A DNA stretch of 23,235 nt from a virus, in the IMG/VR virus record IMGVR_UViG_3300027801_000175, positions 1-23,235 of that record; one strand, written 5' to 3'. How positions within the stretch are numbered: position 1 is the stretch's first letter; each line of letters opens with the position of its first letter. The notes beneath the pieces are model-generated. The model saw only the letters and a program-made list of their open reading frames with translations, did no database searches and was not told the origin of the DNA. Shown here in pieces: positions 10,107 to 21,328 of the stretch. A program made the position numbers and the translations under genes.

Positions 10107-10958
10107 TTAAACTTCTATTTTATCTCCTCCTTTAGTTAAATATGTTTTAACTGGCTTATCTTTATATTCCTTATCTAGAAAGGATTTAATCGTTTCTACA
10201 TTACCTGGGTCATCATCAGAGAATCCTATCGTTGGTATAAAGTTGTTTTTAATATCGTTCTTAAGAAACGCATTTTTTCCAATTCTCTTACTCATTTCCC
10301 TAACATACGTAATAAATTCTCTTAATGCCTTAACCTTACCTTCTTCAGGGTTGGAAGCCTCCCCTTCTCCGTAAGTCACAGGATAATATTTATTTAAATC
10401 TAAGTAGTCATTAATCATAATTGAAGTGTCTGACTCTTCATTTCCGTCCATATCACGATACTTCTTAAGGTTTTGTATTAAAGACTCCTTACTAATCCCG
10501 TTATGGTCGGTTACTATCATATTATAAATTGCGTCACGAAGAACGGATGGAGTATGACCTCTAGCCGTGATTATTGAAAATATTGAACCTCCATTTATAG
10601 CTTCTACAAAATCGTCCCATGATGGTCCTGGTTTTGCAATCAACGAATCAATAATAAATGACTTATCCCCCTTAACCCCGAAATTTCTATAGGAGTCACT
10701 CGCATATCCTATAATATTTTCACCCTTATATTCGAACGGTTCCTTACCAAGTACACCTCTATAGTTAGCAAAGTCTTCAGTGGACATACCTATCTCCTTA
10801 CCTTCATCAGTGGAAACTATTAACTGTGTTGGCATAATCATAATATTATCATCCCAATCAAAGGCGTAATACTTTAAATCAGGATTACCTTCAGGGTCAA
10901 ACCCTTCACATAATTGTTTTTCTTTATAAAACTCTTTTATTACCCTCTTCAAACTCAT
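10107..10958 (-). CDS. HAD-superfamily phosphatase-like protein
   Basis: The 283-aa protein carries the haloacid dehalogenase motifs in order. Motif I is YAFDWDDNIM, with D34 as the likely nucleophile and D36 as acid/base. Motif II is FSIITARGH with T131. A Lys suitable for motif III lies in the KVKALREF region. Motif IV is IGFSDDDPGN (D248-D250). All catalytic positions appear intact, so a phosphohydrolase is plausible. The substrate is unknown; T4 polynucleotide kinase carries a HAD 3'-phosphatase domain, which is one precedent among phages. The N-terminal 30 residues are a basic extension (MSLKRVIKEFYKEKQLCEG). The gene is eight bases-scale close to the upstream 47-aa gene and lies between sheath and tube, an unusual place for an enzyme. 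No Shine-Dalgarno is seen. The fold call is confident, the role is not. Confidence 0.75.
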   Translation of the reverse strand: MSLKRVIKEFYKEKQLCEGFDPEGNPDLKYYAFDWDDNIMIMPTQLIVSTDEGKEIGMSTEDFANYRGVLGKEPFEYKGENIIGYASDSYRNFGVKGDKSFIIDSLIAKPGPSWDDFVEAINGGSIFSIITARGHTPSVLRDAIYNMIVTDHNGISKESLIQNLKKYRDMDGNEESDTSIMINDYLDLNKYYPVTYGEGEASNPEEGKVKALREFITYVREMSKRIGKNAFLKNDIKNNFIPTIGFSDDDPGNVETIKSFLDKEYKDKPVKTYLTKGGDKIEV

Positions 10959-14653: not shown

Positions 14654-15688
14654 TAAAGTCGCCTTAGATATTAATGTTCCTGATTTAGTAATATCATCTT
14701 TTATAATCTCAATCTTAATTAAATCATTTGTCGAAACCTTAATTATATCTATATCATCACCAATGTAATTATCGTTAATATATACGGAGTAACTCGCAAT
14801 ATTCTTAGATTCTAATATCGATAAATTAACCTGATAACGATATGTTTCAGTCAGAGCACTAATTCCGGGATTAAATAAAATATTTAAATCAAAATTCTTA
14901 GGATTTGCAGGATATTTTTTAGCTCTTCGTTTAGAACTAAAGGTTTCTACTTCTAATACCGTTGAGGTTCTTGAGATTGCTGGTGACACTTCGAACTCAT
15001 CTTCATCTAGCAAGAATCCCATCATTAAAAATTCATAATTTTGAACATAGTACTTTCTCTTTTCGATTTCTAATACTGATTCGTCAGAAGAACTGTTTAA
15101 TATAATTGGAATATAATGACCCTTTATTTCCGTATATGCTTGTCTCGATGAAAATGTTTGTAATACTTTTTTATTAAAATCATTTAAGTGCCTCATTTTA
15201 CTACAGAAAATTTTAACATTATAAGTAATATCGACAGGTACTGGTTGAGGTATTTTATATATATCCATACCTTTTCTTTGACCGTCCCACGTTGGTACCT
15301 TAGCATAATAAAATTGTTTCCTATTTGGTATGGTATACTGTAATGATGGATTAGTCCCAAACTTAACATCCGGATTTCTAACTGTGGCAACAAAGGGAGG
15401 TTTAATATTTTTATCTAAATCTTGAAATTTCCACGTCTCAGTAAATTGAGCCCAATTTTGTGTGGTTATAATTAAATCTACGGTATTAATTCTTTTACCA
15501 CTTACAGAAACTTCTAAATCATTTTTAACAAACTCTAACATACCCATATCTAAATCTGCATGTAATATTGATTTAGGTAAATAAGTACCGTTTTCTTGAA
15601 TTTGTTCTAATAACTCTTCTCTTCTCTGATGTAAAATTTTATCAGGTGTTAACGGTAAATGTTTCTTTATGTTTTTAGGTAATGCCAT
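14648..15688 (-). CDS. gp15-like tail terminator / sheath stabiliser
   Basis: The 346-aa protein has a central region similar in pattern to T4 gp15. It has VPVDITYNVKIFC near residue 155, followed by a helix (NKKVLQTFSSRQ) and IKGHYIPIILN, then a basic KRKYYVQNYEF strand and MGFLLDEDEFEV. T4 gp15 caps the tail as a hexamer and joins it to the neck. The protein is longer than T4 gp15 (272 aa), with an N-terminal helical part and a C-terminal beta domain of about 90 residues (from NFDLNILFNPG) that I do not recognise. It begins on the last base of the preceding gene's stop (TAATG), indicating coupled translation. Order gp14-like, zinc protein, gp15-like, sheath follows the T4 13-14-15-18 logic. 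The assignment is moderate. Confidence 0.5.
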   Translation of the reverse strand: MALPKNIKKHLPLTPDKILHQRREELLEQIQENGTYLPKSILHADLDMGMLEFVKNDLEVSVSGKRINTVDLIITTQNWAQFTETWKFQDLDKNIKPPFVATVRNPDVKFGTNPSLQYTIPNRKQFYYAKVPTWDGQRKGMDIYKIPQPVPVDITYNVKIFCSKMRHLNDFNKKVLQTFSSRQAYTEIKGHYIPIILNSSSDESVLEIEKRKYYVQNYEFLMMGFLLDEDEFEVSPAISRTSTVLEVETFSSKRRAKKYPANPKNFDLNILFNPGISALTETYRYQVNLSILESKNIASYSVYINDNYIGDDIDIIKVSTNDLIKIEIIKDDITKSGTLISKATLL

Positions 15689-16248
15689 TATTTTGTAATT
15701 TCACTAATAAAAAATACTTTATTTTTAGAATTAATCATCTGAACTTCATTTGCTTTAAATATTGGCTCTTCAGTATCTTTTTTAACAAATGAATCGTACT
15801 TGTAAGGATTATATGTTATGATATTCTCATTTGGTTCATTAGGTAGTTCTTCACACGGGTAAGTGCAAAAGTCGGTTAAAGTACCTATAACAAAGGCATG
15901 TACATTTTTTCTCATTTCATTTCTTACTTTTTCTTTTCCTCCCTGTCTAACTCTAAACTCTACGTCCATTAATTTAACGTAATCGGCATACATAACAATT
16001 TTACCCTTATATGAAACTGAAAATGTGTGTTTATGTAAATTATAATAAACCATAACTTTTTCACCTACATAGTTTACCTCTTGATTATCGTTACCACATT
16101 TATGACAAATATATGGGTCATCCCCACCGTCACTTAAATCCCAAGACCACTCACAATTATCACACACAACTTTTTCGCCCTCTATACCTTCACACATATG
16201 TACCATATGTCTCTTAATTAAATTTATTTCTTTTATTAATTTTTTCAT
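15688..16248 (-). CDS. Neck-region protein with N-terminal zinc ribbon
   Basis: The 186-aa protein has a four-cysteine zinc ribbon at residues 29-51: VVCDNC (C29, C32), a 15-residue spacer with WSWDLSDGGDDPY, then CHKCG (C48, C51). After it comes a compact domain, about residues 60-125, with VMVYYNLHKHTFSVSYKG, a YVKLMDVEFRVRQGG strand pair and a VRNEMRKNVHAFVIGTL end. I recognise this as a recurrent small phage domain of unknown function. The C-terminal 60 residues are extended. The first 20 residues are basic and helical (MKKLIKEINLIKRHM). It shares an ATGA overlap with the gp14-like gene and a TAATG with the gp15-like gene, so the three are tightly coupled. The role in head-tail joining is inferred from neighbours. 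Confidence 0.6.
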   Translation of the reverse strand: MKKLIKEINLIKRHMVHMCEGIEGEKVVCDNCEWSWDLSDGGDDPYICHKCGNDNQEVNYVGEKVMVYYNLHKHTFSVSYKGKIVMYADYVKLMDVEFRVRQGGKEKVRNEMRKNVHAFVIGTLTDFCTYPCEELPNEPNENIITYNPYKYDSFVKKDTEEPIFKANEVQMINSKNKVFFISEITK

Positions 16249-16806: not shown

Positions 16807-18570
16807 ATGGAAAGTAAGAACGATAAGTTATCAAAAATACCAGAGGTAAGGGCTCAACGTATACTAGAAGTATATGATGGGTTCAATAACCACATACTGT
16901 CAATTCAAAAAAAATTTAAAGAATTAAAACATTTTAAATTAACAAGAGCACAATCAGACTATATAATTATCAATCATACATTAACTCCTAAGATAGCTAG
17001 AAGATGGGTAGATTTAGATAGTTATTTTGGTAAAAAAATGATGGAGGACAAGTTATTGACAAAAGTACCTGAAAAAATTTATATTGAGAAACTTTTAGTT
17101 GAAAAAGATAAAGCATTTCATATTTGGGGTAAAATATTTGAAAATGAGAAGTTACACTCATTTTGGTTACCAAGAGTCGCCCTTATAAAAACACAGGAAA
17201 ATAATCAAGTCGATATCTCATATGACGATTACTCACATAGACCTCCGTTGGAACATCAAAAAGAGGCTATTGAGAAACTAGCCACACATAATAAATATAT
17301 TTTAGCTGACGATATGGGGTTAGGTAAAACCACATCGGCAGTAATTGCTGCTTTGGAGTCAGGAATTGAGAGAGTATTAATTGTCTGTCCCGCATCATTA
17401 AAAATTAATTGGAAAAGAGAAATACAAAACTACACCGATAAATCAATATCTATAGTTGAGGGTAAAAAATGGGAGAGTGCTGACTTTGTTATTATGAACT
17501 ATGACATACTAAAGAATTTTCATGACATAAAAAATAAAGAGGACTCTATAATATTACAGGAAGGATTTGATTTAGTAATTGTTGATGAGGCTCACTATAT
17601 TCAAAATGTACAAGCTAAAAGAACTAAATTAATTAATGACATTATTAATTCAATAGGTAAAGTATGGTTACTCACGGGCACTCCAATGACCTCCCGACCG
17701 ATTAATTATTATAATCTATTAAATTTAGTGGAATCCCCTGTGGCGTATAATTGGATGGCTTATGCTATCCGATATTGTGAAGGATACCAATTTAATGTGG
17801 GTAATCGTAGAATATGGAATGTAACGGGTTCGTCAAACCTAACCGAGCTAAGGGATAGAACTAAAACACACGTATTACGAAGGTTAAAACAAGACATATT
17901 AGACTTACCCGATAAAATAATCACACCAGTTTACCTTAACTTAAAATCTAAAGAGTATATGGCTTTAATGGGGGAGTATTATAATTGGGTTGAAGATGAT
18001 AGTGAAAAAAAATCATTAACTGTTCAGTTCTCGAAATTAATGAAGGTTCGTCAAGTTATTGCCGAAAATAAAGTTAAATCAACCTGTGAGTTGGTTGAAA
18101 ATATTATTGAACAAGGTAAAAAGGTAATCGTCTTTACTAACTTTACTGATACATTAAATAGGATAGTTGACCACTTTGGTAAATCAGCAGTAAAGTTAGA
18201 TGGGTCTATGAGTAAAGTTGCCAGACAAAATTCTGTTGACCAATTTCAAGAAAACGATAAGATTAAAGTTTTTGTTGGTAATTTAAAAGCTGCCGGTGTT
18301 GGTATAACCTTGACAGCTGCAGAGGCCGTAATTATGAATGATTTATCCTTTGTACCATCTGACCACGCACAGGCAGAAGATAGGGCGTATAGATATGGCC
18401 AAAAATCTAATGTTTCGGTATTTTACCCTATTTTTGAAAACTCTATCGAGGGAGTTATTTATGATATCTTGTCCCGAAAAAAAAATATTTTCGAGACAGT
18501 AATGGGAGATAATGAAAATAAAGGAGATATAATGGAACAAATTATAAATGAAATTTCGGTAAGACGATAA
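16807..18570 (+). CDS. SNF2-family DNA helicase/translocase
   Basis: The 587-aa protein contains the superfamily 2 motifs. Walker A is DDMGLGKTT (K174), motif Ia is VLIVCPASLKINW, the DEAH box is VDEAH (D260-H263), motif III is LLTGTPMTSRP (T290-P293), and motif V is AAGVGITLTAA. Motif VI is QAEDRAYRYGQ (R526, R529), with the Q-x-x-D-R-x-x-R-x-G-Q form characteristic of SNF2/SMARCAL1-like proteins. The N-terminal 150 residues are an accessory region (RAQSDYIIINHTLTPKIAR and WGKIFENEKLHSFWLPR). In T4 the related translocase UvsW handles branched DNA in replication and recombination; a similar role is inferred. It is the first gene of the rightward block, divergent from the neck genes. All motifs are intact. 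No Shine-Dalgarno is seen. Confidence 0.9.
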   Translation: MESKNDKLSKIPEVRAQRILEVYDGFNNHILSIQKKFKELKHFKLTRAQSDYIIINHTLTPKIARRWVDLDSYFGKKMMEDKLLTKVPEKIYIEKLLVEKDKAFHIWGKIFENEKLHSFWLPRVALIKTQENNQVDISYDDYSHRPPLEHQKEAIEKLATHNKYILADDMGLGKTTSAVIAALESGIERVLIVCPASLKINWKREIQNYTDKSISIVEGKKWESADFVIMNYDILKNFHDIKNKEDSIILQEGFDLVIVDEAHYIQNVQAKRTKLINDIINSIGKVWLLTGTPMTSRPINYYNLLNLVESPVAYNWMAYAIRYCEGYQFNVGNRRIWNVTGSSNLTELRDRTKTHVLRRLKQDILDLPDKIITPVYLNLKSKEYMALMGEYYNWVEDDSEKKSLTVQFSKLMKVRQVIAENKVKSTCELVENIIEQGKKVIVFTNFTDTLNRIVDHFGKSAVKLDGSMSKVARQNSVDQFQENDKIKVFVGNLKAAGVGITLTAAEAVIMNDLSFVPSDHAQAEDRAYRYGQKSNVSVFYPIFENSIEGVIYDILSRKKNIFETVMGDNENKGDIMEQIINEISVRR

Positions 18571-18610: not shown

Positions 18611-18751
18611 ATGAAGTTCAAAAGATTAAAAAGTAAAATCTCGTTAATTGAACATAAAATAAAAAGTCGAGGTAATCTATATCAAATAGACGAATCAACC
18701 TCGCAACCCCCACAAAGAAATATTAAAAGAAATGGAAAATATTGGTATTGA
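18611..18751 (+). CDS. Small basic 46-aa protein overlapping the SOD fusion gene
   Basis: The frame encodes MKFKRLKSKISLIEHKIKSR, an Asp/Glu/Ser/Thr and Pro stretch (DESTSQPPQ) and a basic end (RNIKRNGKYWY). It has a TATTTATA motif 14 bases upstream and overlaps the start of the superoxide dismutase fusion gene by 20 bases in another frame, suggesting translational coupling. Its strong positive charge is compatible with binding DNA, RNA or another acidic partner. I recognise no family. It could be a leader peptide whose translation controls the next gene. Confidence 0.5.
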   Translation: MKFKRLKSKISLIEHKIKSRGNLYQIDESTSQPPQRNIKRNGKYWY

Positions 18752-20174
18752 AAAATTACCGTACTCTTATTCTGCCTTAGAAAGATTTATAGATTCAGAA
18801 ACTATGGATATACACTATAACAAACACTATAAAGGATACGTAAAGAAATTAAATAACGCATTAGTTAAAAAAGTTAATAATGGAGTTGATTTAGAACAAA
18901 TAATTAAAGGAGTCTCAAGGTATAGTGAAACCGTAAGAAATAACGCTGGAGGAGCGTTTAATCACTCTTTATTTTGGAAAATGTTATCTCCTAAAACACA
19001 AAGAGCTCAAGGAGAGATTTATAAAAAAATAATCAGTGATTTTGGTGATTTTTCTAAATTTAAAAGAATATTTAGTAATGAATCCCTTAAGAATTTTGGT
19101 TCAGGATGGACTTGGTTAGTATTAACTAACACAGGCAAATTAAAGGTTATGTCTACTACTAATCAGGATAATCCATTAATGGATGTAATTAAAAATGGGG
19201 GGTACCCACTTTTAGGTATAGACACATGGGAACATGCGTATTACTTAAAATATCGTAATAAAAGAGACGAATATGTCAAAAATTTTTGGTCAGTGGTTAA
19301 TTGGGATTTTGTTAATGAATTATATGGATTAAGAACTAAGAAAAAATTAGACGAGGTCACTCAAGTTAAAACCATTATTTTTGAAGGGGCAAGTGCTGGT
19401 TGTAATAGAAATCAAGTACAAGGGTACCGAAGACTATTTAATACTAATCCTGAAATTAAAAGAAGATTCATGCATACTATTATGGATATTCTTAAGGAAG
19501 TATTTTCCGAATATTGGTACGAGAAAAATAAATATGATATAGGTCAGATGTCAGGGGTTTATGATTATGAACAAAAAGGTCGTTCAGTCATTAATAAATT
19601 AAATACAAACTATACCGCATTTTGTACTTTAGTTAATGACACTAACCAATATTTGAAAAAATATGGGGTTGACGCAATTAATTTTAACAACAAAAACCGT
19701 AAAGAAGAACAAACTGAAGTAGACCGATTTAATAAATATTTAGTGGAATTAAGATATAAAATATTTGATTCAGAATCCCCAACATTTAAAACAGTTATGT
19801 CAGGATTAGATAAAACTAATCGTTTTGGGGATAAGAGAGAAGTCGATGCCGTGGTTAAATTAAAAGAACTATTTAAGACGGATAAGGTTAAAAAGGTAGG
19901 TGAATTAGGTGGTGTTGATGATATGATTAAAGGTATTGACGCGACTGTCGATTTAGGTGAAGGTATTAAAACAATACAAATTAAACCATTTAATCGAGTT
20001 AGTAATAAAAATGGTAAGGTCATTGTATATGGTACCGCGAATGTAAAACCATATAAAACAGACTACTTAGTTTTTCATAATAATAAATTAGGTACTAAGA
20101 TTTTTGATAACTCATCAACTAAAATTATTAATGGAAGATATGTTTTTAATGAGTCCTCTGAATACATTAATTAG
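18732..20174 (+). CDS. Fe/Mn superoxide dismutase fused to a C-terminal PD-(D/E)XK nuclease-like domain
   Basis: Residues 8-200 of this 480-aa protein are a full Fe/Mn superoxide dismutase. They contain LPYSYSALERFIDSETMDIH, GGAFNHSLFW, FGSGWTWLVL, STTNQDNPL and the signature DTWEHAYY, then FWSVVNWDFV. The metal ligands H28, H78, D164 and H168 are present, as are second-sphere H32, Y36 and Q145; a Gln in the NQD position and Gly-Gly at 73-74 favour the Mn type. Typical enzymes end here. Residues about 200-355 are an unrecognised, mostly helical linker (EGASAGCNRNQVQGYRRLF). Residues about 360-470 resemble a PD-(D/E)XK nuclease: a helix with REVDAVVKLKELF, then GGVDDMIKGIDATVD (D403) and KTIQIKPF (Q416, K418). 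No signal peptide or frameshift is visible, so it is one intact fusion. It sits between helicase and gp13-like neck genes; T4 gp4, a head-completion protein with a similar EIKP motif, is one possible analogue for the C-terminus. Confidence 0.85.
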   Translation: MENIGIEKLPYSYSALERFIDSETMDIHYNKHYKGYVKKLNNALVKKVNNGVDLEQIIKGVSRYSETVRNNAGGAFNHSLFWKMLSPKTQRAQGEIYKKIISDFGDFSKFKRIFSNESLKNFGSGWTWLVLTNTGKLKVMSTTNQDNPLMDVIKNGGYPLLGIDTWEHAYYLKYRNKRDEYVKNFWSVVNWDFVNELYGLRTKKKLDEVTQVKTIIFEGASAGCNRNQVQGYRRLFNTNPEIKRRFMHTIMDILKEVFSEYWYEKNKYDIGQMSGVYDYEQKGRSVINKLNTNYTAFCTLVNDTNQYLKKYGVDAINFNNKNRKEEQTEVDRFNKYLVELRYKIFDSESPTFKTVMSGLDKTNRFGDKREVDAVVKLKELFKTDKVKKVGELGGVDDMIKGIDATVDLGEGIKTIQIKPFNRVSNKNGKVIVYGTANVKPYKTDYLVFHNNKLGTKIFDNSSTKIINGRYVFNESSEYIN

Positions 20175-20215: not shown

Positions 20216-21328
20216 ATGTCCATAATTAATGAACCACAAAGAACGAAACTATATACACGAATTAAACATCTATTAGGTGCTCCAATACGTAGCATAGAAA
20301 TAGAAGATGAAATGATGGACTCACTACTTGAGTTATCAATTCAAGATTATGCCCAATACGTGAATGATTGGTTAATAGAATCACAATGGACTTCACTATA
20401 TGGACTAAATTTAGACGAACAATCGGTAACAAGAGCATTGACTACTCGTTCTTTAGATTGGGAAACACAATATACTTACTCCTACTCAAAAATTGTCGGA
20501 TTACAAGCTGGTGGTGATTCTGTTTTAAAGAAAGATTATATTTCTCTAATTCCAAACCAACAAATATATGAAATACCGGCAGGTAGAGAACTTAACGAAC
20601 TTTTATGGTTTACTAGAGCTGAATTAGACGCCGCCTTTTTTGACCCATTTATGGGTGGATTTGGTGGTATGGGAGGTGTTGGATTAGGTGGTGGTGCTGG
20701 TATGTCACAAATGGGTTCAGGCGGTAATTACATGATTACTCCCGCATTTGATATCTTACTTAGAATGCAAGATATTAATATTAAAAGAAGACTTATTGGT
20801 GGTGAATTAACTTATAGAGTCACGGCATTACCTGAAGGTAAAAAGGCATTACACCTTTTTAATGTACCTGGAGGTAAGTTTGATTTTGGTAATATGCAAA
20901 ATAACGAATACCGTGTATGGTATTGGTATTATGAAACTAACGATAGAGAAGATTGTTTAGCTAAAAACCCTGATATTGTTAGGTTACCTTCTGATATCCC
21001 TATAGATGAAATGAAGTGGGATGAGTTAAATAGTCCCGCACAGACGTGGGTAAGAAAATGGTTTGTTGCATATGTAAAGGAAACCTTAGGACGTGTTAGA
21101 GGTAAATTTAGTGGTAACTTAAAAACTCCTGACTCTGAAGTTACATTAGAATATGATTCTTTATTAACTGAGTCAAAAGATGAGAAAAGTAAACTTATAG
21201 AAGAATTAACCTTAAGACTAGAAAGGTTAAGACCTGAAAAAATGATGGAAAGAGAGGCATTACTAGCGGAAAACCTTAATAAAACATTAACTTATCGTGC
21301 AATGCCACGACAAATATATGTAATATAA
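20216..21328 (+). CDS. Neck / head-completion protein, gp13-like
   Basis: The 370-aa protein starts with a helical segment typical of head-tail connector proteins (LYTRIKHLLGAPIRSIEIED, then MMDSLLELSIQDYAQYV). T4 gp13 likewise begins with a short helix, LGAPV-type motif and acidic D-x-x-M-x-D helix. The middle holds a beta domain with YISLIPNQQIYEIP and, after an insertion, FDILLRMQDINIKRRLIGG and ALHLFNVPGGKFDFG. The C-terminal helices (TWVRKWFVAYVKETLGRVRGK, then a charged coiled coil) and the ending MPRQIYVI also fit. T4 gp13 sits between portal and gp14. An unusual Gly/Met-rich loop (about residues 144-175, GGFGGMGGVGLGGGAG) interrupts the beta domain. The gene has its own TATTTATA motif and is followed after two bases by the 110-aa gene. 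Confidence 0.6.
   Translation: MSIINEPQRTKLYTRIKHLLGAPIRSIEIEDEMMDSLLELSIQDYAQYVNDWLIESQWTSLYGLNLDEQSVTRALTTRSLDWETQYTYSYSKIVGLQAGGDSVLKKDYISLIPNQQIYEIPAGRELNELLWFTRAELDAAFFDPFMGGFGGMGGVGLGGGAGMSQMGSGGNYMITPAFDILLRMQDINIKRRLIGGELTYRVTALPEGKKALHLFNVPGGKFDFGNMQNNEYRVWYWYYETNDREDCLAKNPDIVRLPSDIPIDEMKWDELNSPAQTWVRKWFVAYVKETLGRVRGKFSGNLKTPDSEVTLEYDSLLTESKDEKSKLIEELTLRLERLRPEKMMEREALLAENLNKTLTYRAMPRQIYVI

What the first reader, a model, noticed from the sequence alone, without database searches (positions are those of the whole stretch)
18732..20174. Phage superoxide dismutase fused to a nuclease-like domain in a structural gene block
The N-terminal 200 residues are a complete Fe/Mn superoxide dismutase with all four ligands (H28, H78, D164, H168) and the DTWEHAYY signature. 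About 280 further residues follow in the same frame, ending in a GIDATVD...KTIQIKP arrangement like PD-(D/E)XK nucleases. I know of no characterised phage protein with this architecture. It lies between an SNF2 helicase and a gp13-like neck gene, with a late-type motif upstream, so it may be a virion or packaging-stage protein. Possible roles: protecting DNA or an Fe/Mn-dependent nuclease from oxidants during infection, metal sensing by the SOD fold to gate a nuclease, or head completion as for T4 gp4.
Basis: partly seen in the sequence, partly recalled or inferred. Interest (0 to 1): 0.88.

Follow-up and report, generated by a model that had tools for sequence, protein, structure and literature searches.

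The report
Phage-head cargo: superoxide dismutase plus nuclease
An uncultured T4-like virus of bacteria makes one long protein holding an antioxidant enzyme and a DNA-cutting enzyme joined by protease-cutting signals, which suggests that both are packed into the virus head, cut apart there and injected into the host.

Summary
ORF 18732-20174 is a complete Mn-type Fe/Mn superoxide dismutase (SOD) followed by a PD-(D/E)XK-fold domain. It is not an assembly join: 189 distinct fused proteins, down to 40% identity, lie at one fixed locus (SNF2 helicase - SOD-nuclease - neck gene). SOD ligands and nuclease residues E370, D403, Q416, K418 are essentially invariant. The disordered SOD-nuclease linker carries two conserved (L/I)xE sites (79 seen versus 25±4 in shuffles of 40 non-redundant linkers). 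Most family leaders end in (L/I)xE exactly before the SOD methionine. L/I-X-E is the T4 gp21 prohead-protease motif, and 7 of 8 large relatives encode gp21 and gp23. Best explanation: an internal-head cargo polyprotein, packaged, cut by the prohead protease into free SOD and nuclease, and injected with the DNA. Cleavage, virion location and activities are inferred, not shown. In the window itself the leader is out of frame. Similar proteins already sit in databases, annotated only 'superoxide dismutase'. I call it a new variant of a known kind (T4 internal proteins / polyvalent proteins).

The parts
16807..18570 (+). SNF2-family helicase, conserved upstream neighbour
   Evidence: Pfam SNF2-rel_dom 1e-26; adjacent upstream in 211 of 215 testable loci
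18611..18751 (+). 46-aa leader-like ORF (MKFKRLKSKISLIEHKIKSRGNLYQIDESTSQPP...), out of frame with the SOD ORF and overlapping its start; homologous to the in-frame leaders of relatives
   Evidence: identical in independent contigs L001 and L002
18723..18731 (+). In-frame L-K-E immediately before the SOD Met: putative cleavage site (leader / SOD junction)
   Evidence: in 21 of 27 non-redundant leaders [LIVM]xE sits at exactly this place, 19 of 27 with [LI] versus 1.1 in shuffles
18732..19334 (+). Mn-type Fe/Mn superoxide dismutase domain (residues 1-201), ligands H28, H78, D164, H168
19335..19385 (+). Disordered linker with two (L/I)xE motifs: L206-D-E208 (19347-19355) and I216-F-E218 (19377-19385), putative prohead-protease sites
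   Evidence: pLDDT below 50 at 204-220; E208 in 188/189 and E218 in 177/189; enrichment
19386..19778 (+). Helical subdomain of the nuclease module (residues 219-349) with conserved G275, R284, S285
19779..20171 (+). PD-(D/E)XK-fold nuclease core (residues 350-480): E370, D397, D403, Q416-x-K418
20216..21328 (+). Neck / head-tail adaptor-like gene, conserved downstream neighbour
   Evidence: phrog_211 3e-10; adjacent in 206 of 210 testable loci

Best explanation
A cargo polyprotein of the phage head. The SOD-nuclease chain (in most relatives with an N-terminal helical leader) is packed into the prohead of a T4-like jumbo phage. The gp21-type prohead protease cuts after (L/I)xE before the SOD and at two sites in the linker, leaving a free Mn-SOD with its native N-terminus and a free PD-(D/E)XK nuclease. 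Both are ejected with the genome: the SOD blunts superoxide early in infection and the nuclease acts on DNA in the cell (host, plasmid or rival phage). Shown here: domain identity, conservation, fixed locus, modularity, motif enrichment and position, and presence of gp21/gp23 in relatives. Inferred: cleavage, packaging, injection, enzymatic activities and targets. For the window phage itself the leader is out of frame, so its targeting may use the internal linker signal, a frameshift, or be impaired.
For: (1) Linker: 40 non-redundant linkers (<80% identity) hold 79 (L/I)xE versus 25.3±4.3 in shuffles (maximum 39 of 1000 shuffles); all have at least one and 85% at least two; density 6.6 per 100 aa versus 0.8 in the SOD; genome background for at least two in a 30-aa window is 5.6%. 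(2) Leader: 149 of 165 distinct leaders, and 21 of 27 non-redundant ones, end in [LIVM]xE exactly before the SOD Met; [LI]xE 19 of 27 versus a maximum of 5 in 2000 shuffles. (3) L/I-X-E is the T4 gp21 motif, and CTS fusions, including nucleases, are packaged and delivered (PMC9026906). (4) Seven of eight large relatives encode Peptidase_S77/gp21 and gp23; their capsid propeptides end in INE|A, T4-like. (5) Modules swap or stand alone, each with its own leader: nuclease alone 'MTTVKTSTYLILLTE|', SOD alone 'KFILSE|MKKIGIEKLPY'; a nuclease paralogue next to gp21 begins 'MKITISE|GQYKILSE|'. (6) Many other proteins of G001 (72 versus 30.5 expected) and G008 (34 versus 14.4) have N-terminal (L/I)xE leaders.
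Against: No virion proteomics or cleavage data. (L/I)xE is short and common. Scaffold-like proteins of these phages are not enriched in it overall. The window's own leader is out of frame, and the window fragment shows neither gp21 nor gp23. Leaders look like coiled-coil helices and could serve oligomerisation instead. A packaged nuclease must be kept from cutting the phage's own DNA, and how is unknown. N-terminal motif enrichment across the proteome is moderate in G008.
Confidence: 0.62

Rival explanations
1. An uncut bifunctional cytoplasmic enzyme made late in infection: the SOD protects phage DNA or the nuclease while the nuclease works in replication, repair or packaging.
For: SOD and nuclease share one open frame in 294 of 315 SOD proteins fetched; locus between helicase and neck genes; fold close to Holliday-junction resolvases (Hjc, Z 8.5).
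Against: The linker is disordered and enriched for prohead-protease motifs; modules occur separately; some relatives lack the gene.
Confidence: 0.2
2. The nuclease works with the adjacent SNF2 helicase as a split ZorD-like pair that destroys host or rival-phage DNA in the infected cell; the SOD is an accessory passenger.
For: SNF2 gene adjacent in 211 of 215 loci; the SNF2 protein scores against ZorD (SNF2 plus Mrr-like nuclease) at 1e-46; D...QxK resembles Mrr nucleases (from memory).
Against: The SNF2 gene persists where SOD and nuclease are absent (L364, L379, L390) or replaced by other C-termini; SNF2 matches are generic to the superfamily.
Confidence: 0.1
3. Processing of the polyprotein is not by the prohead protease but by a metallopeptidase domain, as proposed for polyvalent proteins, in the host cell after injection.
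For: Some members carry an N-terminal domain with an HEWVH (HExxH) motif; zincins are proposed processors in polyvalent proteins (PMC5512222).
Against: Most members, including the window's, lack that domain; the conserved sites fit the gp21 motif.
Confidence: 0.05
4. The SOD fold is only a dimerising scaffold or metal sensor that gates the nuclease.
For: Fusion is widespread; both domains are expected to bind metals.
Against: All SOD ligands and second-sphere residues are conserved, as expected for catalysis; the nuclease exists without the SOD at the same locus.
Confidence: 0.03

Closest known systems
Phage T4 internal proteins and Alt (capsid-targeting leader cut by gp21)
   Same: L/I-X-E sites, leader peptide in most members, gp21/gp23 in the same genomes, diverse swappable cargo
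   Different: Two enzymes in one chain with sites between them; the cargo is an SOD and a PD-(D/E)XK nuclease; virion location untested; leader out of frame in this phage
Polyvalent proteins of phages and plasmids (PMC5512222)
   Same: Several unrelated enzymatic domains in one polypeptide, some with an HExxH metallopeptidase; proposed to be injected
   Different: SOD is not mentioned in that paper; here cutting is proposed by the prohead protease
Bacterial Mn-SOD (Sphingobacterium, 6gsc)
   Same: About 45-51% identity, same ligands and Mn-type residues
   Different: No fused bacterial form was found; phage SODs stand apart at no more than 51% identity to the bacterial ones retrieved
PD-(D/E)XK enzymes: I-Ssp6803I, archaeal Hjc, Eco15I, DpnI
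   Same: Core fold and E...D...xK residues
   Different: Q replaces D/E in the third motif; extra helical subdomain with invariant G and R; no sequence-level family match
Chlorovirus PBCV-1 Cu/Zn SOD (A245R)
   Same: Virus SOD, late gene, packaged in the virion, thought to lower superoxide early (PMC7019647)
   Different: Unrelated Cu/Zn SOD fold, algal virus, not a fusion
A0A6J5L953, 501 aa, 'superoxide dismutase', uncultured Caudovirales phage
   Same: Its model matches the nuclease domain (E 2e-25, TM 0.89) and its name says SOD: evidently the same architecture
   Different: Automatic annotation only; nuclease and cleavage sites unrecognised

Membership tests
Fe/Mn superoxide dismutase | Pfam Sod_Fe_N and Sod_Fe_C above curated cut-offs | tested here: met
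   81.6 and 131.7 bits versus 27 and 20.9
Fe/Mn superoxide dismutase | Three His and one Asp metal ligands, conserved | tested here: met
   H28, H78, D164, H168 in all or all but one (a gap) of 189
Fe/Mn superoxide dismutase | Dismutase activity and metal content | not testable with these tools
   needs purified protein
PD-(D/E)XK nuclease superfamily | Core alpha-beta fold | tested here: met
   2ost E 2.6e-3 probability 1.00; Hjc 2wcw Z 8.5, rmsd 3.4 over 102 residues
PD-(D/E)XK nuclease superfamily | Conserved acidic residues and Lys, E...D...(D/E)xK | tested here: inconclusive
   E370, D403 and K418 are essentially invariant but Q416 replaces D/E; QxK variants are known in Mrr-type enzymes (from memory)
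PD-(D/E)XK nuclease superfamily | DNA cleavage | not testable with these tools
   needs assay
T4-type internal head cargo cut by gp21 | L/I-X-E sites at leader end and between modules | tested here: met
   family-wide; the window has LKE, LDE and IFE
T4-type internal head cargo cut by gp21 | N-terminal capsid-targeting leader in frame | tested here: inconclusive
   present in nearly all relatives; out of frame in the window, L001 and L002
T4-type internal head cargo cut by gp21 | gp21-type protease in the same phage | tested here: inconclusive
   in 7 of 8 large relatives; the window is a 23-kb fragment
T4-type internal head cargo cut by gp21 | Present and processed in virions | not testable with these tools
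   needs virion proteomics
Polyvalent proteins | Domains of disparate biochemical activity in one polypeptide | tested here: met
   SOD plus PD-(D/E)XK fold, in some members also an HExxH domain
Polyvalent proteins | Injected with the DNA | not testable with these tools
   needs infection experiments
T4 gp4 head-completion nuclease | Sequence or profile relationship to gp4 | tested here: inconclusive
   no PHROG head-completion match; no direct profile comparison with gp4 was made

The most novel reading that the evidence does not exclude
Tailed phages use the prohead protease as a polyprotein processor. A family of T4-like jumbo phages packs a chain of (metallopeptidase)-SOD-nuclease into the head, matures it into free enzymes, and delivers an antioxidant plus a DNase with the genome as a first-strike kit. 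The same (L/I)xE leader marks tens of other, swappable cargo proteins per phage, so that it could serve as a sequence tag to predict the injected proteome of uncultured phages.
Probability: 0.5. Interest if true: 0.85.

Novelty: new variant of a known kind. Interest (0 to 1): 0.72.

Why it matters
I found no report of a tailed-phage SOD carried in the virion or of an SOD-nuclease chain (open-access papers only). If true, oxidative chemistry at the moment of phage entry is important enough to be countered by a delivered enzyme, and prohead-protease sites can be read from sequence to list the injected arsenal of uncultured jumbo phages. It also explains a repeated 'superoxide dismutase' annotation in viral metagenomes that would otherwise be read as an auxiliary metabolic gene expressed in the cell.

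Tried and rejected
Assembly chimera: rejected. Ordinary SOD C-terminal tail: rejected. Late-promoter motif: not above chance. Sequence profiles for the C-terminus in Pfam, PHROGs, NCBIfam, PADLOC and PDB sequences: nothing significant. Fold search with the full-length model listed only SODs in the rows shown, so the domain was folded alone. Bacterial copies of the C-terminal domain: none confirmed in genome contigs with one peptide pattern. Phage records: no C-domain match in annotated phages; the phage SODs looked at there are standalone in unrelated settings. (L/I)xE enrichment of the scaffold-like proteins was checked and not found overall. Searches failed through input errors. My early trimming of homologues at the SOD Met hid the leaders until.

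Full report
What is there. The window is a 23,235-bp virus record, a fragment, carrying T4-like genes. ORF 18732-20174 encodes 480 aa without interruption. Residues 6-200 are a full Fe/Mn SOD: both Pfam halves are above cut-off, the best solved relative is Sphingobacterium Mn-SOD 6gsc, E 1e-60, and the AlphaFold model matches SODs at Z 26 over about 200 residues. G74 and Q145, which are Mn-type signatures from general knowledge, and all ligands are conserved in 189 distinct fused proteins.

The C-terminus. No sequence family matched. Folded alone with 73 homologues it gives pLDDT 92 and pTM 0.85. Foldseek and VIA-align put PD-(D/E)XK enzymes on top: I-Ssp6803I (E 2.6e-3, probability 1.00), archaeal Hjc (Z 8.5, rmsd 3.4 over 102 residues), Eco15I, DpnI, PvuII and EcoRV. 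Z near 8 is modest by the tool's own yardstick, but the list is consistent and E370, D403 and K418, with Q416 in place of D/E, are essentially invariant. I take the fold as well supported and nuclease activity as likely but unproven. Ahead of the core is a helical subdomain with invariant G275 and R284.

Not an artefact. The SNF2 gene is adjacent upstream in 211 of 215 and the neck-like gene adjacent downstream in 206 of 210 testable loci. The C-terminal domain was not found in the bacterial species collection with the one pattern scanned. The nearest bacterial SODs retrieved are Sphingobacterium, 45-51%.

A modular locus. At this same place relatives carry: nothing (L364, L379, L390), nuclease alone with a short leader ending LLTE (L353, L355), SOD alone with a leader ending ILSE (L366), or metallopeptidase-like (HEWVH) plus SOD with or without different C-terminal modules, some with their own GxD...QVKP or DV...SCK arrangement (L174, L175, L177, L184, L205, L226). 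Of 80 neck-gene loci, 74 have the SOD plus this C-domain. Separable parts argue against a mechanism that needs the two domains coupled.

Cleavage signals. The linker is the least confident part of the model (204-220) and varies, except for two (L/I)xE motifs about 10 residues apart: E208 in 188/189 and E218 in 177/189. In 40 non-redundant linkers there are 79 such motifs versus 25.3±4.3 in composition-preserving shuffles. Upstream, in-frame leaders end in [LIVM]xE exactly at the SOD methionine in 149 of 165 distinct and 21 of 27 non-redundant cases; with [LI] only, 19 of 27 versus a shuffle maximum of 5. Cutting there would regenerate the native SOD start. L/I-X-E followed by cleavage is the gp21 specificity, and leader fusions, including nucleases, are packaged and delivered by T4 (PMC9026906; PMC3012670). 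Seven of eight large relatives have gp21 and gp23 relatives, with capsid propeptides ending INE|A.

A wider cargo class. In the 322-kb relative G001, (L/I)xE peaks at residues 7-10 and 22 of its proteins; 72 start this way versus 30.5 expected, many as MKKVIRLTE-SDLVRLVKRIINE. In the closer relative G008 it is 34 versus 14.4. A standalone nuclease paralogue, E 4e-16 to the C-domain profile, lies next to gp21 and starts MKITISE-GQYKILSE. This suggests a general tag for head cargo; it is a statistical inference.

Caveat for this window. Its leader ORF (18611-18751) is one frame off and ends shortly past the SOD ATG; L001 and L002, differing by 1-2 bases in 6 kb, share this. LKE still precedes the ATG in frame. 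Whether this lineage makes the leader by frameshifting, or has lost it, is open.

Function. Most likely sequence: synthesis, packaging, prohead cleavage, ejection, then superoxide removal and DNA cutting in the new host. Virion-borne SOD has a precedent in PBCV-1 (PMC7019647), and a packaged nuclease kept silent until metal is supplied has one in T4 engineering (PMC3012670). The nuclease's target is unknown; host or rival DNA is my guess.

Known or new. BFVD already holds A0A6J5L953, named 'superoxide dismutase', whose model contains this nuclease domain, so the sequence type is deposited but, as far as the searches showed, undescribed. I rate it a new variant of a known kind.

Noticed in passing
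G001 (322-kb contig of L172), held as L255-L270: Tens of small, mostly unknown proteins share an N-terminal leader MKKxIRLTE-SDLxxLVKRIIxE or MKxLITE-S, a possible capsid-targeting tag.
   Followed up: partly
window 10107-10958 (-): Gene between tail sheath and tube genes, start MSLKRVIKEFYKEKQLCE-GFDPEG; the G001 homologue starts MRKKYILE-GITE-EG: also leader-like.
   Followed up: partly
window 15688-16248 (-): Protein with a CxxC-type zinc-ribbon-like start after MKKLIKE-INLIKRHMVHMCEG; matches phrog_586 of unknown function.
   Followed up: no
window 18611-18751 (+): Leader ORF out of frame with the SOD ORF in three near-identical contigs; possible frameshift or translational coupling.
   Followed up: partly
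L308 6542-7861: A TnpB/IS605 OrfB-like gene sits between the SNF2 and neck genes in a 484-kb uncultured phage (LR756508), the place where the SOD-nuclease sits in others.
   Followed up: no
L366 3956-4468: A nucleotidyltransferase-like ORF (KIVFTNGCFDIIHKGHV...) follows the SOD-only gene at the same locus.
   Followed up: no
L175 2518-4617 and L184 2524-4620: A roughly 700-aa form with an HExxH domain, SOD and a third, unrelated-looking C-terminal module (SPYDVF...ISCKI).
   Followed up: partly
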